Shown: positions 1 through 5,899 of the stretch, piece by piece
How positions within the stretch are numbered: position 1 is the first letter of the stretch
How the letters are laid out: each line of letters opens with the position of its first letter
Assembly: GCA_947628465.1 (NCBI GenBank)
Contig: CANQZZ010000090.1
Location: 1-5,899, forward strand
Direction of reading: 5' to 3'
DNA: 5,899 nt
From: an uncultured Clostridia bacterium
GTDB lineage: Bacteria; Bacillota_A; Clostridia; TANB77; CAG-508
Program-made: the position numbers and the translations under genes
The notes under the pieces: generated by a model
Seen by the model: only the letters and a program-made list of their open reading frames with translations
Told to the model about the DNA's origin: nothing
The model's database searches: none

Positions 1-2421
1 GTTATATTTTTAATAATGATAGTTGTTATTCCAGTTTTCAACAATATATTTGGAGAGATAAATGAAAATTATAAAGGAAGCGAAATAGTTACTTCCAATA
101 GTGTTGGGGGAAATGAATCTCCTAATCCATTGAGCAGGCCTATATTCTGGTTAATAAATACTTGTGCTGAAATTGGTGAATATCTACTTTCTTCATTTGC
201 AAATTTGATGGCCTCTCAAAAAACTGGTAGAGGAGTTATGCCATGGGCTGATGCAATAATATATAATGGTGTTCCTGCGTTAGATGTAAACTTCATTAAT
301 CCAGATACTAATTCGTTTTCTAATATATTATCAAGTACAATTTCTAAATTATATTATACAATATTTTCTATTTCTATAACATTTTTTACAATTGCTGTTT
401 TAATAATGGCAATAAAACTTGCTACAACTGCAATTGCTGCTGAAAAAGCCTTATATAAAGAAATGGTTGGAAATTTTATTATATCTTTGATATTAATTTT
501 TTCAATTCATTATTTTATAAGTTTTTGCTTTTATTTAAATGAAAGTTTAGTAAAAGTTGCGTTTGCAATTGGACAGGTGCAATTGCAAGGTGAAAGTGTA
601 AAAATAGATTCAAATGCTAAAGATCGTTTTGAAAAGCTAGAAAGTACACAACTAGAAGATCTTTATGTTGGAGCAAATAATGAGGATGAAAATGAAAGAT
701 GGCATCAAGAGTTATTTGACCGTATTAAGGAAGATATGTTTGATGGAGGAAAAAAAGAACAAGTTTTTAATTATTTATCAGCTACTACATTACAAATTTT
801 AAATGATAATAATGGCGATCATATAGATACGGCATGTCAAACAGAAAAAGCAGTTATTGTATTCTGTATGGTGCATTTAGTAAATGATAATTACGAAAAT
901 AATGAAAGTATATTTACGAATAATCAAGAGTATCCTGATGGCGAAAATGAATTATATAACCAATTAAAAAAATATTATGATAAATTTTTTTATGATATGA
1001 TTGATACAGATACACTTATGACGGAATTGGGTATTAGAAGTACGCGTAGGGAATTTGAGGTAGTATATAAAGACTGTTTTGATATAGATAATTGGGGTTC
1101 AACTAAAAAATATAGAAATTTAGAAAAAACTGTTATTAATGGTATTAATGAAGCAGTACTTAGAATGAGATCAATTTATGGCTATGAGGATTCATCATTA
1201 GAAGAATATGGAAATTCTGTTGTATCACAATTGTCAGTATATTTTAAATTAAATAGATATGATGCAGAGGGAGAAATAAGTTTAATAGGTGTTATTGTCT
1301 ATGCAATATTTGTTTTACAATCAATAATGTATTTCTTTGCTTATTTAAAAAGATTTTTCTATATTGTAATATTATCTTTCTTTGGACCATTTCTTGTATT
1401 ATTTGATTTCTTATCAAAAGCGGTTGGACAGAATAGTAATACATTATCAAAATGGATAAGGGAATTTTGTGCATTAGTATTTATACAAACCTTACAAGCA
1501 TTTTTGCTTACTATGATGGCGACGCTAATTGTTAAAATAAATGGAAAAATATCTGACCTTGAGTTTAGTCAAGCACAGGGATTAGCAGTAATTAATATAA
1601 TTGCACTTGCATCTATGGCAAAACTAGAACAACTTGTATCTGATATGATTGGACTTAAGTCTTCTGTCTCAGATGTTGGCTTAAAAGGTGGGGCAAAAAT
1701 GGGAGCTCACGGACTTGCTGGCGGTGTTGCAACAATGGCAGCATTAAGAAGACTTGGTGATAATGGTAAGAAGATGCTTGGCGGAGTTAGAGGAATTGCA
1801 GCTGGAAGAAGAGAACAAAAGAATGCTTTAGTAGAGAAAAATAGAAAGGTAGCTCAATATGCCGAATTGTTATCCAAAGGTGGCGGCTCAGAAGGCTCTG
1901 CAGATGCAGGAGAAGTAGGAACAGGAACACCAGGTGGTTCAGGTTCAGGTGGCGGAACTGGCATAGGCAACGGAGGCGTCTCAGCTGGAGCATTAGGTGG
2001 TAGAGCACCAAGTATAAAAGATAAACATAAATATGAAGATATGTTAGCAAATTGTGATGCTAAAATTATGGAAGCAAGAAATAAAAAGAAAGCGGCAATA
2101 TACCAAATTGCAAGTGGTGTGCTTGAAACATCAGGTTCTGTTGCAGGATTTGTAACTGGAGGCACACTAGCAGGAACTATGCATGCAGCAGCAGGAGATT
2201 TTTCTTTAGGAGATGTATTGTCTGATGCAGTAAAAGGTGCTGGTGTAGGTGACGTTTTAGGAGAGGCTGCACTAAGTATACCAGCTGGTGTGGCATCATT
2301 TGGAAAAGATATAAAAGCTGGTTCAGGTAAAAAAGCATTAATTAACCAAATAAAACAAAAACAAGAAATAATAAAAGATGCTTATATAAAAGCAGGATTT
2401 GATGTATCTGATTTAGAATAA
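1..2421 (+). CDS. TrbL/VirB6-like polytopic membrane protein, copy A (5' partial)
   Basis: Probable channel or scaffold protein of a type IV secretion-like apparatus in the cytoplasmic membrane. The first ATG is at 16, but the frame is open to base 1. Alignment with the complete downstream paralogue puts that Met inside the first hydrophobic segment, at its residue 21, so roughly 15 residues lie upstream of the window. Counting from Met16: a conserved signature (MPWADAIIYNGVPALD, about 75-90); helices near 112-137 and 153-175; an acidic hydrophilic loop of about 184-398 with Cys274, Cys284 and Cys354; helices near 422-445, 447-466 and 483-507; a weaker hydrophobic stretch at 523-536; then a basic, Gly/Ala-rich tail with a Gly/Ser linker (622-662) and GxxxGxxxG motifs at 707-715 and 741-749. 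Positive-inside charges (AEKALYK, YLKRF) place the loop outside. The W-I-R-E-F-C...Q-T-L-Q-A-F-L-L stretch resembles VirB6/TrbL proteins. The family call is inference; the membrane plan is seen directly. Confidence 0.85.
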   Translation, partial: VIFLIMIVVIPVFNNIFGEINENYKGSEIVTSNSVGGNESPNPLSRPIFWLINTCAEIGEYLLSSFANLMASQKTGRGVMPWADAIIYNGVPALDVNFINPDTNSFSNILSSTISKLYYTIFSISITFFTIAVLIMAIKLATTAIAAEKALYKEMVGNFIISLILIFSIHYFISFCFYLNESLVKVAFAIGQVQLQGESVKIDSNAKDRFEKLESTQLEDLYVGANNEDENERWHQELFDRIKEDMFDGGKKEQVFNYLSATTLQILNDNNGDHIDTACQTEKAVIVFCMVHLVNDNYENNESIFTNNQEYPDGENELYNQLKKYYDKFFYDMIDTDTLMTELGIRSTRREFEVVYKDCFDIDNWGSTKKYRNLEKTVINGINEAVLRMRSIYGYEDSSLEEYGNSVVSQLSVYFKLNRYDAEGEISLIGVIVYAIFVLQSIMYFFAYLKRFFYIVILSFFGPFLVLFDFLSKAVGQNSNTLSKWIREFCALVFIQTLQAFLLTMMATLIVKINGKISDLEFSQAQGLAVINIIALASMAKLEQLVSDMIGLKSSVSDVGLKGGAKMGAHGLAGGVATMAALRRLGDNGKKMLGGVRGIAAGRREQKNALVEKNRKVAQYAELLSKGGGSEGSADAGEVGTGTPGGSGSGGGTGIGNGGVSAGALGGRAPSIKDKHKYEDMLANCDAKIMEARNKKKAAIYQIASGVLETSGSVAGFVTGGTLAGTMHAAAGDFSLGDVLSDAVKGAGVGDVLGEAALSIPAGVASFGKDIKAGSGKKALINQIKQKQEIIKDAYIKAGFDVSDLE
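1591..2421 (+). repeat. direct repeat, copy A C-terminal coding region
   Basis: Matches 4096-4920 from the last hydrophobic stretch (INIIALASMAKL) to the stop codon. Bases 1591-1995 differ from the partner at about 27 positions by hand count, plus a 6-base indel in the Gly/Ser linker. Bases 1996-2352 differ at one position only. The last 69 bases (2353-2421) differ at four. Similarity ends at the stop codon. Confidence 0.95.
1879..2001 (+). other. Gly/Ser/Ala low-complexity linker, copy A
   Basis: Encodes residues about 622-662 of copy A, mostly Gly, Ser, Ala and Thr, joining the membrane-proximal basic tail to the glycine-zipper region. Glycine codons make it locally much richer in G+C than the surrounding gene. 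It is 2 residues longer than the copy B linker. Confidence 0.85.
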
Positions 2422-2484
2422 TTTTACTATATTCATGTATTTATTTAATACTTAGAATATTCAAAATGATATAGGAGATTTAGT
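2422..2484 (+). other. 63-base spacer between the paralogues
   Basis: Very AT-rich. I see no clear -35/-10 pair. The 8-base palindrome GAATATTC (2455-2462) has no loop and no T-run after it, so it is not a convincing terminator. Copy B is therefore probably read through from copy A, although this is the longest gap in the cluster and a weak internal promoter cannot be excluded. Confidence 0.5.
2473..2477 (+). promoter_or_regulatory. ribosome binding site of copy B
   Basis: AGGAG lies 7 bases before the ATG at 2485, which supports that start and hence the full N-terminal hydrophobic segment. Confidence 0.85.
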
Positions 2485-4920
2485 ATGAAGAAAATCAAAA
2501 TTATTCAAATGTTAAAAAGAGTTATTATCATTGCAGTTATAATTGGAATTATAATTGTACCTCATTTTAATTATATATTTGCTGCTATAAATGAAAATTA
2601 TAGTGGTACAGAGGTTATAACTTCAATGAATGTTACAGGTGATGAAGATTCTAATATACTTACTAAAGCCATTTTTTGGCTCATAAATACATGTGCGTCT
2701 ATAGGAGAATCATTACTTACATCATTTGCTAAAGTTTTAGCTTCAGTTGGTGATGGGGATACTGGCGCAGCTCTTATGCCATGGGCCGATGCAATAATAT
2801 ATAATGGAGTTCCAGCATTAGATGTAAACTTCATTAATCCTTCTGCTGGCTCATTTTCAAGTATAATATCTGATGTAATTGCAAAACTTTATTACACTAT
2901 ATTTTCAATATCAATAACTTTTTTTACAGTTGCAGTATTAATAATGGCAATAAAACTTGCAACAACAGCTATTGCTGCTGAAAAAGCTAGATATAAAGAA
3001 ACAGTTGCTGATTTTGTAATATCTTTAATTTTAATATTTTCTATTCACTATTTTATAAGTTTTTGTTTTTATTTAAATGAAAGTTTAGTAAAAGTGGCTT
3101 TTGGAATTGTGGATAATCAATTAAGTGGATCATTTACTTTTGCTGGTGCTGCCCAGCAACAAAAGAATTTAATAGAGAGAGTTAAAGATGCAAAAGGAAC
3201 AGGAAACGAAAATTGGTTTCATGATGATGATAATGATGATGCGTTTGAAAAGTTATCCGATTATATAGCAGAGGCTTTGACTGATGGAGGAAAGTATGAA
3301 TTAGCAGCTAAATATTTGGCTGGTGGCTATGAAGATTTTTTAACTGAAGATAATGGTAATGGTTTAAGAAAAACTAATGATACGGATAGAGCAGTCCTTT
3401 TATATTGTATGGCTAAGGCGGTTTATGATCATAGAGAAACAGGTGTAATATTTGAAAACAAATTTGGAGAAGATATTACTTACGGCGATGATTATAAAGA
3501 AGATGATGAATTATATTTAGTATTGAAAGAAGCTTTTGATGCAGATATAAAAAATGATTGTAATATAAGAAGATCATTTGCTACTATATATAAAAGCTGT
3601 GTAGATATATTAAGTGATAATACATATGGAAAATATGAAGTTACAATGATGAATGCAATGACTACAGCAGTAGCTATGTTAAATTCTACTGGTGATGTAA
3701 CTCCTGGACAAATTGATGTTTCAAAATTAGGAAATTCAGTAGTATCGCAATTATCAGTATATTTTAAAATAAATAGATATGATGAAGATGGTGATATAAG
3801 TTTAGTAGGAGTTATTGTTTATACAATATTTGTTTTCCAATCAATAATGTACTTCTTTGCTTATTTAAAAAGATTTTTCTATATAGTAATATTATCTTTT
3901 TTTGGGCCATTCCTTGTATTATATGATTTTATGGCCAAAGCTATGGGACAGAGAAATAGTACTTTGTCAAAGTGGATTAAGGAATTTTGCGCTATAGTAT
4001 TTATACAATCTTTACAAGCATTTCTACTTACGATGGTATCATCCTTCATAGTTGAAATAAATGATAATGTAAATCAAGCGCCAGGATTGGCTATAATTAA
4101 TATAATTGCACTTGCATCTATGGCAAAACTAGAACAACTTGTATCTGATATGATTGGACTTAAATCTTCTGTCTCTGATGTTGGACTAAAAGGTGGAGCA
4201 AAAATGGGAGCTCACGGACTTGCTGGTGGTATTGCAACAATGGCAGCATTAAGGAGACTTGGTGATAATGGTAAGAAGATGCTTGGCGGAGTTAGAGGAA
4301 TTGCAGCTGGAAGCAGAGAACAAAAGAATGCTTTAGCAGATAAAAATAGAAGGGTAGCTCAATATGCTGAATTGTTATCCCAAGGTGGTGGAGCAGAAGG
4401 CTCTGCAGGTGCAGGAGAAGCAGGAGAAGGCGCACCAGGTGGTTCAGGTGGTGGAACTGGCACAGGCAACGGAGGCGTCTCAGCTGGAGCATCAGGTGGT
4501 AGAGCACCAAGTATAAAAGATAAACATAAATATGAAGATATGTTGGCAAATTGTGATGCTAAAATTATGGAAGCAAGAAATAAAAAGAAAGCGGCAATAT
4601 ACCAAATTGCAAGTGGTGTGCTTGAAACATCAGGTTCTGTTGCAGGATTTGTAACTGGAGGCACACTAGCAGGAACTATGCATGCAGCAGCAGGAGATTT
4701 TTCTTTAGGAGATGTATTGTCTGATGCAGTAAAAGGTGCTGGTGTAGGTGACGTTTTAGGAGAGGCTGCACTAAGTATACCAGCTGGTGTGGCATCATTT
4801 GGAAAAGATATAAAAGCTGGTTCAGGTAAAAAAGCATTAATTAACCAAATACAACAAAAACAAAAAATAATAAAAGATGCTTATAGAAAAGCAGGATTTG
4901 ATGTATCTGATTTAGAATAG
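2485..4920 (+). CDS. TrbL/VirB6-like polytopic membrane protein, copy B (complete)
   Basis: Complete 811-residue tandem paralogue of the gene before it, starting 7 bases after an AGGAG. A basic N terminus (MKKIKIIQMLKR) precedes a hydrophobic segment at about 13-25, ending near IFAA, which could be a signal peptide or a first helix. The signature MPWADAIIYNGVPALD lies at about 98-113. Helices lie near 135-158 and 176-196. The hydrophilic loop of about 207-415 is acidic, with a DDDNDD run at 247-252 and Cys308, Cys359 and Cys372. Core helices lie near 438-460, 462-481 and 500-523, with a weaker one at 533-547. The tail has a Gly/Ser linker (634-672) and glycine zippers at 717-725 and 751-759. 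Cys308 and Cys372 align with Cys284 and Cys354 of copy A; the rest of the loop is largely unrelated. Length and topology suit the VirB6-like channel proteins of Gram-positive conjugation systems, but no decisive motif exists and the assignment is inferred. Confidence 0.9.
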   Translation: MKKIKIIQMLKRVIIIAVIIGIIIVPHFNYIFAAINENYSGTEVITSMNVTGDEDSNILTKAIFWLINTCASIGESLLTSFAKVLASVGDGDTGAALMPWADAIIYNGVPALDVNFINPSAGSFSSIISDVIAKLYYTIFSISITFFTVAVLIMAIKLATTAIAAEKARYKETVADFVISLILIFSIHYFISFCFYLNESLVKVAFGIVDNQLSGSFTFAGAAQQQKNLIERVKDAKGTGNENWFHDDDNDDAFEKLSDYIAEALTDGGKYELAAKYLAGGYEDFLTEDNGNGLRKTNDTDRAVLLYCMAKAVYDHRETGVIFENKFGEDITYGDDYKEDDELYLVLKEAFDADIKNDCNIRRSFATIYKSCVDILSDNTYGKYEVTMMNAMTTAVAMLNSTGDVTPGQIDVSKLGNSVVSQLSVYFKINRYDEDGDISLVGVIVYTIFVFQSIMYFFAYLKRFFYIVILSFFGPFLVLYDFMAKAMGQRNSTLSKWIKEFCAIVFIQSLQAFLLTMVSSFIVEINDNVNQAPGLAIINIIALASMAKLEQLVSDMIGLKSSVSDVGLKGGAKMGAHGLAGGIATMAALRRLGDNGKKMLGGVRGIAAGSREQKNALADKNRRVAQYAELLSQGGGAEGSAGAGEAGEGAPGGSGGGTGTGNGGVSAGASGGRAPSIKDKHKYEDMLANCDAKIMEARNKKKAAIYQIASGVLETSGSVAGFVTGGTLAGTMHAAAGDFSLGDVLSDAVKGAGVGDVLGEAALSIPAGVASFGKDIKAGSGKKALINQIQQKQKIIKDAYRKAGFDVSDLE
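4096..4920 (+). repeat. direct repeat, copy B C-terminal coding region
   Basis: Partner of 1591-2421, same orientation. The nearly invariant block here is 4495-4851, with its only difference at 4545 (G, against A at 2046), a synonymous Leu codon change. The copies lie about 2.5 kb apart, a spacing that would allow homologous recombination, either conversion or deletion of one copy. Confidence 0.95.
4384..4500 (+). other. Gly/Ser/Ala low-complexity linker, copy B
   Basis: Encodes residues about 634-672 of copy B, equivalent to the linker in copy A but lacking one Gly-Ser unit. It carries several amino acid replacements, clustered more densely than in the coding sequence on either side. Confidence 0.85.
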
Positions 4921-5507: not shown

Positions 5508-5899
5508 ATGGAAGATTATTTTCAAATACTTAAAAAATATAGAATAATTATAGTTGTTTATATTGTATTTTTTATTGCTATCTTATATTTTATTTGGAGG
5601 CCACAATCACCAGAAGATACTTCTCTTTTTAATATTGAAGATGTGGAAGAAAAAACAATGACTGATAGATTTTATAGTTATTATAAGAAAAAATTAGATC
5701 AAATTTTTATAGAAAAAAATTATGAAAAAATATATAATGACTATTTACTAGCAGATTACAAAAAGAAAAATAACATTTCTTTGGAAAATGTTGAAGAGAT
5801 AATAAAGTATAGATGTGAGAGTTTTGCTTCTGCCACTGTAACTCAATATACTGCAAGTAAAAGTGGTACAAGCTATGTATATCATGTTATTTATACTGA
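5508..5899 (+). CDS. second single-anchor membrane protein, NTF2-like candidate (3' partial)
   Basis: The window holds 130 whole codons plus two bases and no in-frame stop, so the gene runs past the edge. A short N terminus (MEDYFQILKKYR) leads into one membrane helix at about 13-29. Then come an acidic linker (EDTSLFNIEDVEEKT) and a helical stretch from about 53 to 101 (YYKKKLDQIF, NYEKIYNDYL, LENVEEIIKY). Strand-like segments follow (ASATVTQYTA, SYVYHVIY). This anchor, helices, then sheet order parallels the preceding gene and suggests an NTF2-like or VirB8-like external domain. The pattern of Tyr and Lys residues around helix 1 is typical of secreted NTF2-like domains, but this is pattern recognition, not a database match. 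It begins 15 bases after the previous stop with its own AGGAG 6 bases before the ATG, so it probably belongs to the same operon. Sequence identity between the two small proteins is low by eye. Confidence 0.85.
   Translation, partial: MEDYFQILKKYRIIIVVYIVFFIAILYFIWRPQSPEDTSLFNIEDVEEKTMTDRFYSYYKKKLDQIFIEKNYEKIYNDYLLADYKKKNNISLENVEEIIKYRCESFASATVTQYTASKSGTSYVYHVIYT

What the first reader, a model, noticed from the sequence alone, without database searches (positions are those of the whole stretch)
1996..2352. 357-base block almost identical to 4495-4851: recent gene conversion between tandem paralogues
By direct comparison the two blocks differ at one base (2046 A, 4545 G), a synonymous Leu codon. 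Elsewhere, membrane helices with nearly identical protein sequence (for example 352-450 against 2884-2982) carry many synonymous differences. Protein-level selection alone does not preserve synonymous sites, so recombination has probably homogenised this tail after an older duplication.
Basis: partly seen in the sequence, partly recalled or inferred. Interest (0 to 1): 0.7.

Follow-up and report, generated by a model that had tools for sequence, protein, structure and literature searches.

The report
Tandem secretion-channel genes sharing one tail
Two neighbouring genes for a membrane protein of a bacterial secretion or DNA-transfer machine have drifted far apart over most of their length, but DNA copying between them keeps their ends almost identical; this is a clear example of a known process, with an unusual parallel in relatives that carry only one copy of that end.

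Summary
1996-2352 and 4495-4851 differ at one synonymous base, where random synonymous codons would give about 65 mismatches. The genes (W1, 5'-cut, 1-2418; W2, 2485-4917) encode tandem VirB6/TrbL-like membrane proteins beside type IV secretion genes. One related locus, L001 (uncultured Clostridia MAG), carries the same pair. Up to 1568, sites group the genes by position (316 against 7 by genome); over 1569-2352 by genome (35 against 1); at 2353-2418 by position again (2 against 0). AU tests agree. Between strains the tail diverges normally (25-34 differences in 358), so DNA-level constraint is not the cause.

What I add: the homogenised stretch is the last predicted membrane helix plus tail. 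In related genomes the gene is often split, and in 4 genomes two N-terminal genes precede one C-terminal gene. Conversion may keep two fused copies equal to one shared subunit; that step is inferred. The window is probably a strain arm of L001's k=77 assembly graph, so a few differences could be hidden.

The parts
1..2418 (+). W1: first tandem gene (5' end cut by the contig), VirB6/TrbL-like polytopic membrane protein, 806 aa present; stop codon at 2419-2421
   Evidence: ORF; profile match to the N, M and C parts; weak NCBIfam hits to ICE/conjugal transmembrane families
2485..4917 (+). W2: second tandem gene, 811 aa, same architecture; stop codon at 4918-4920
   Evidence: ORF
1995..2352 (+). 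most recent conversion tract in W1 (357 of 358 identical to 4494-4851); encodes the distal tail
4494..4851 (+). partner tract in W2
1569..1994 (+). older or mosaic homogenised stretch of W1 (last predicted membrane helix, proximal tail, Gly/Ala-rich linker); 38 differences in 428 from W2 over 1546-1994
4074..4493 (+). partner of the older stretch in W2
2353..2418 (+). last 66 nt of W1: position-specific sites return (2353, 2365), so the tract ends before them
4852..4917 (+). last 66 nt of W2, position-specific
532..1260 (+). W1 large acidic loop between hydrophobic segments, diverged from W2 (dN about 0.6-0.8)
3070..3801 (+). W2 large acidic loop, diverged
2404..2987 (+). 584 nt identical to L001 (end of W1, spacer, first 167 codons of W2): between-strain exchange or an assembly-graph shared edge
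1..77 (.). exactly 77 nt shared with L001 7529-7605 at the contig's left end (reads as a k=77 graph junction; inference)
5823..5899 (.). exactly 77 nt shared with the right end of the L001 contig (reads as a k=77 graph junction; inference)

Best explanation
An older tandem duplication produced two VirB6/TrbL-like genes. Since then their N-terminal helices and large loop have diverged, while homologous recombination without loss of a copy (gene conversion) has overwritten the 3' third of one gene with the other. In the window's strain the latest event covered about 1995-2352 / 4494-4851, and older events covered about 1570-1994. Shown: the switch of phylogenetic signal, the tract limits, the recency (after the window/L001 split), and normal between-strain divergence of the same sites. 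Inferred: RecA-type recombination as the machinery, the donor (not resolved), and that both proteins need the same last helix and tail because these contact the same partner in the channel.
For: W1 and W2 differ at 485 of 1488 sites over 1-1545 but at 1 of 358 over 1995-2352; the orthologues W1-L1 and W2-L2 differ at 34 and 25 of those 358, with tail dS of 0.14-0.47 and 0.17-0.29, in the range of the rest of the genes. Four-sequence informative sites: 316 by position, 7 by genome, 7 crossed over 1-1568; 1 by position, 35 by genome, 2 crossed over 1569-2352; 2 by position over 2353-2418. AU test: only the by-position tree survives for 78-1545; only the by-genome tree for 1849-2352 (others p about 1e-5) and 1995-2352 (others p about 9e-4). 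Permutation: 0 of 20,000 for W1/W2, all sites and silent sites. Of 15 amino-acid sites in the C part where both W copies stand against both L copies, most cannot be polarised, but 2035 E in both W copies (outgroups Q in 6 of 7) and 2017 R in both L copies (outgroups K in 7 of 7) point to a shared change in each lineage.
Against: Only one related DNA locus could be found. L1 and L2 differ at 29 of 358 in the same block, and the L1/L2 silent-site permutation is not significant (7,106 of 20,000). In the protein tree of the whole C part W1 and W2 pair (98/98), but L2 joins them (89/90) and L1 pairs with P0003 instead; that part includes a helix and an end that carry position signal. P0009/P0010, probably a pair on one contig, are less alike in the tail (78%) than in the last helix region (95%). 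Stretch 1546-1848 alone does not decide between the trees. The exact count rests on what is probably a short-read assembly. The functional reason is not tested.
Confidence: 0.9

Rival explanations
1. The near-identity is made or exaggerated by the assembler: in a k=77 metagenome graph the two tails share one edge, and small differences are collapsed as bulges.
For: The window starts and ends with exactly 77 nt shared with L001, L001's contig carries a SPAdes-style NODE name, and metaSPAdes is described as collapsing the majority of strain differences by bulge projection (PMC8021871, passages). The 306-nt run is longer than 77.
Against: As I understand such graphs, to enter and leave a shared edge both copies must contain the same 77-mers at its two ends, and both 77-mers are exact; so about 152 nt in the middle could hide differences. 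With one entry and one exit per copy there is a single linear path through both genes (inference). The by-genome signal is also strong outside the exact run (18 sites over 1849-1994).
Confidence: 0.07
2. The whole second gene is a recent duplicate and the front parts were later replaced by imports.
For: Conversion and import leave similar mosaics; the W2 front is identical to L2 over 2485-2987, so imports into this locus are plausible.
Against: Front parts of both genes have orthologues in the same order in L001, and 316 sites group by position, so the two front types predate the strains' split; two position-specific sites also survive at the very 3' end (2353, 2365).
Confidence: 0.02
3. Selection on the DNA or RNA itself (antisense gene, regulatory element, RNA structure) keeps the tail fixed.
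For: Antisense ORFs of 103 and 101 aa overlap part of the tail.
Against: The same sites diverge normally between strains, and no antisense ORF of 90 aa or more is listed there in L001.
Confidence: 0.01

Closest known systems
mtrA-1/mtrA-2 of methanogens (PMC4632066; abstract and one results section read)
   Same: paralogues in one operon whose membrane parts differ while one domain is kept alike within each species by gene conversion
   Different: a methyltransferase domain, recurrent over very long times in many species; here a secretion-channel-like protein, shown clearly in one strain and partly in another
virB6-1 to virB6-4 tandem paralogues of Rickettsiales (PMC7648143 and PMC3556328, passages read)
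   Same: tandem VirB6 genes in synteny with virB3 and virB4, extended C-terminal parts, strong strain variation
   Different: copies differ in their C-terminal parts, two with internal repeats; no tail homogenisation was described in the passages I saw
long-lasting concerted evolution in prokaryotes (PMC6053082, passages read)
   Same: paralogues kept alike by recurrent conversion; tandem pairs such as fla and mtrA
   Different: the passages name core genes such as tkt, dxs, ftsH, fla and methanogenesis genes; 'secretion' occurs 0 times in the text

Membership tests
Concerted evolution by gene conversion between tandem paralogues | paralogues within a genome more alike than orthologues between genomes in the tract | tested here: met
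   W1/W2 1/358 against 25-34/358; AU test. For L1/L2 met over 1546-1994 (28/419 against 50/428 and 61/437), not over 1995-2352 (29/358)
Concerted evolution by gene conversion between tandem paralogues | duplication older than the split of the genomes compared | tested here: met
   316 by-position sites over 1-1568; N-part protein tree, W1 with L1 (and P0003) 100/99, W2 with L2 100/100
Concerted evolution by gene conversion between tandem paralogues | significant tract against permuted sites | tested here: met
   0 of 20,000 for W1/W2, all and silent sites; L1/L2 all sites 0 of 20,000, silent sites 7,106 of 20,000
Concerted evolution by gene conversion between tandem paralogues | recurs in independent lineages | tested here: inconclusive
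   clear in W, partial in L; P0009/P0010 show no tail-specific effect
VirB6/TrbL-like T4SS inner-membrane channel protein | sequence match to a curated VirB6/TrbL family above cut-off | tested here: not met
   best NCBIfam hits are 26.5 bits against cut-off 70 (W2) and 21.8 against 90 (W1), to ICE and conjugal transmembrane families; no VirB6/TrbL Pfam model listed at E up to 1. I therefore say 'VirB6/TrbL-like', not a member
VirB6/TrbL-like T4SS inner-membrane channel protein | polytopic protein encoded next to VirB2-, VirB3- and VirB4-type genes | tested here: met
   in L042: TrbC/VirB2-type pilins, PrgI-like (below its cut-off; PrgI as the VirB3-type part is recalled), P-loop TraG/VirB4-type ATPase directly upstream; about 7 hydrophobic segments
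VirB6/TrbL-like T4SS inner-membrane channel protein | VirB6 fold | tested here: inconclusive
   models with mean pLDDT 45.8 and 59.6; no Foldseek match at E up to 0.001; VIA rows look like generic helical matches

The most novel reading that the evidence does not exclude
The channel needs two different N-terminal halves but one common C-terminal half. Some relatives meet this with two N-terminal genes and one separate C-terminal gene; the window's lineage carries two fused copies and keeps the C-terminal halves interchangeable by gene conversion, so conversion does the work that sharing one subunit does in the relatives.
Probability: 0.25. Interest if true: 0.6.

Novelty: new member of a known kind. 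Interest (0 to 1): 0.35.

Why it matters
It gives a clean bacterial case in which conversion is limited to one part of a protein, with sharp limits and recency relative to a related strain. The split relatives (two N-terminal genes, one C-terminal gene) offer a natural comparison for asking whether conversion is selected for keeping a shared interface or is merely self-reinforcing wherever paralogues remain similar.

Tried and rejected
No own genome is held for the window. No near (megablast) match in plasmids or phages, and no relative in viral contigs with W2 alone or with the 12-protein alignment. Searching 385 genomes of the order with W2 and 391 of the class with P0009, both at E 1e-60, found only G001 again. 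PDB sequence search with the alignment: 0 hits at E up to 10. Two structure predictions were too weak to use, and the Foldseek and VIA searches gave no convincing match; no VirB6 chain is among the 50 rows shown of each, which excludes nothing. A programmed frameshift or readthrough at the N/C split was considered and dropped: at 14 of 15 junctions a start codon stands 11-24 nt after the stop, by eye with a purine-rich stretch before it (the fifteenth, L054, has an ATG in another frame). Donor direction is unresolved: W equals L2 at 18, L1 at 10 and neither at 1 of 29 sites. Literature searches for VirB6 with gene conversion, concerted evolution with T4SS, tandem VirB6 paralogues, split VirB6, and tandem paralogues with conjugation showed no title, and the passages I opened no text, with this finding; the lists were capped, so this is not proof of absence. 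The one 'gene conversion' mention in PMC3556328 was not among the 12 passages shown.

Full report
WHAT IS THERE. The window's main forward ORFs are W1 (1-2418 plus stop, cut at its 5' end), W2 (2485-4917 plus stop), a 186-aa ORF and a 130-aa ORF open at the right end. W1 and W2 align over their whole length. If only the protein were preserved, random synonymous codons in the window's own usage would leave about 65 mismatches, never fewer than 40 in 5,000 draws.

RELATED LOCUS. A scan of genome contigs with W2 gave one relative, L001 (CANQYI010000007.1, uncultured Clostridia bacterium, isolate Lapin-016; that this means a rabbit sample is my guess from the name). It is 86% identical in the best segment and carries the same pair in the same order, L1 then L2, followed by the same two small ORFs. 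The genome holding it has these two matches only, at E up to 1e-3.

DIVERGENCE ALONG THE GENES. In 60-codon windows the W1/W2 dS is 0.41-3.05 in windows starting up to 1522 and 0-0.18 in those starting from 1612; L1/L2 behave alike (0.26-1.33, then 0.09-0.34). The orthologue pairs show no such drop: W1/L1 0.14-0.47 throughout; W2/L2 0.05-0.61 after a first stretch of 0. So the tail sites that are fixed between W1 and W2 are free to change between strains.

SITE PATTERNS. Counting ungapped sites that divide the four genes two against two: 1-1568, 316 by position, 7 by genome, 7 crossed; 1569-2352, 1 by position, 35 by genome, 2 crossed; 2353-2418, 2 by position. Tree tests over W1 78-1545 keep only the by-position tree; over 1849-2352 and 1995-2352 only the by-genome tree; 1546-1848 does not decide. 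A permutation test on variable sites gives 0 of 20,000 for W1/W2 (run 2061-2349), also with silent sites only. L1/L2 has a significant run at 1888-1947 with all sites (0 of 20,000) but not with silent sites (7,106 of 20,000). Of 15 amino-acid sites in the C part where both W copies differ from both L copies, most cannot be polarised; 2035 (E in W, Q in 6 of 7 outgroup proteins) points to a change shared by both W copies and 2017 (R in L, K in 7 of 7) to one shared by both L copies.

RESULTS THAT DO NOT FIT A GENERAL RULE. In the protein tree of the whole C part W1 and W2 pair (98/98), but L2 joins them (89/90) while L1 pairs with P0003. The protein pair P0009/P0010 (both listed with a longest contig of 53,597 bases; that this is one contig is inferred) is less alike in the tail (78%) than in the membrane part (87-95%). 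The case is therefore strong for the window's strain and partial for L001.

ASSEMBLY CAVEAT. The window begins and ends with exactly 77 nt shared with L001, and L001's contig ends at the same base. With the SPAdes-style name of L001's contig this suggests that the window is a strain arm of the same k=77 graph (inference). [quoted passage not shown] Both end 77-mers of that run are exact in both copies, which leaves about 152 nt where that could happen. The 584-nt identity with L001 at 2404-2987 may likewise be a shared edge or a real exchange between strains.

WHAT THE PROTEIN IS. Upstream of the pair in L042 are TraX, SSB, VirB2-type pilins, a PrgI-like protein (below its cut-off), a 527-aa ORF and a P-loop TraG/VirB4-type ATPase; further upstream lie housekeeping-type genes (serine hydroxymethyltransferase, phosphoglucose isomerase). 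W1 and W2 have about seven hydrophobic segments, a large acidic loop of 243-244 residues and a 258-260-residue tail. Family hits are to ICE/conjugal transmembrane families but below the curated cut-offs; 25 of 40 aligned proteins hit one of these families at E up to 0.01. I call it VirB6/TrbL-like from gene order and topology; the fold could not be tested.

RELATIVES ARE OFTEN SPLIT. Of 36 genomes in the family of G001, 27 have a match. I took 30 stretches from these 27 genomes (two of them from G001) and searched them with profiles of the N, middle and C parts. 11 genomes have an N+middle gene and a separate C gene (in G013 on two contigs; in G020 and G024 the first gene is itself broken). 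4 genomes (G002, G016, G025, G026) have two N+middle genes followed by one C gene. Fused genes occur in G001 (two), G031 and once more in G025. In the remaining 10 genomes the C profile found nothing at its threshold; one search lists weaker matches reaching into the C part in 7 of these 10, and two of them (G035, G036) look fused, with one 695-aa frame, while G018's match lies at a contig end. At 14 of 15 junctions a start codon stands 11-24 nt after the stop. In the N tree the first and second N genes of G002, G025 and G026 group by position (99/96 and 86/77; those of G016 are not placed), and W1 groups with L1, W2 with L2. The split point, at about W1 1430, lies some 115-240 nt before the homogenised stretch, which starts between 1545 and 1668, close to the last hydrophobic segment (1582-1638); the two limits are near but not the same.

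INTERPRETATION. Gene conversion between old tandem duplicates is well supported (0.9). Why only the last helix and tail are homogenised is open. Either conversion reinforces itself where the paralogues stayed alike, or both proteins must present the same end to one partner; the single C gene beside two N genes in four relatives makes the second idea attractive, but I have no functional evidence. Close precedents exist: mtrA-1/mtrA-2 of methanogens, where one domain is homogenised while membrane parts differ (PMC4632066, abstract and one section), and prokaryotic concerted evolution in general (PMC6053082, passages). Tandem virB6 paralogues in synteny with virB3 and virB4 are known from Rickettsiales (PMC7648143, PMC3556328, passages).

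Noticed in passing
window 2404-2987 against L001 9920-10503: 584 nt identical between the two strains, covering the end of W1, the spacer and the first 167 codons of W2, while nearby stretches differ by about 5 to 30%.
   Followed up: partly
window 3301-3600 (W2 loop): the loop of W2 differs strongly from L2 (identity 70-73% in 150-base steps; dS 0.5-0.6, dN up to 0.43), more than other orthologous stretches, as if a diverged loop had been swapped in.
   Followed up: partly
L047, L055, L057, L061: two N+middle genes followed by one C gene: a split VirB6-like arrangement in four genomes of the family.
   Followed up: partly
protein P0008 (552 aa): a third kind of front part joined to a tail 90-93% like those of L1, L2 and W2; possibly another paralogue or a related species.
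   Followed up: no
window 1-77 and 5823-5899: exact 77-nt matches with L001 at both contig ends, as expected of a k=77 assembly graph shared by two strains.
   Followed up: partly
L046 and L053: the first gene is broken between its N and middle parts by a change of frame; real or an assembly error.
   Followed up: no
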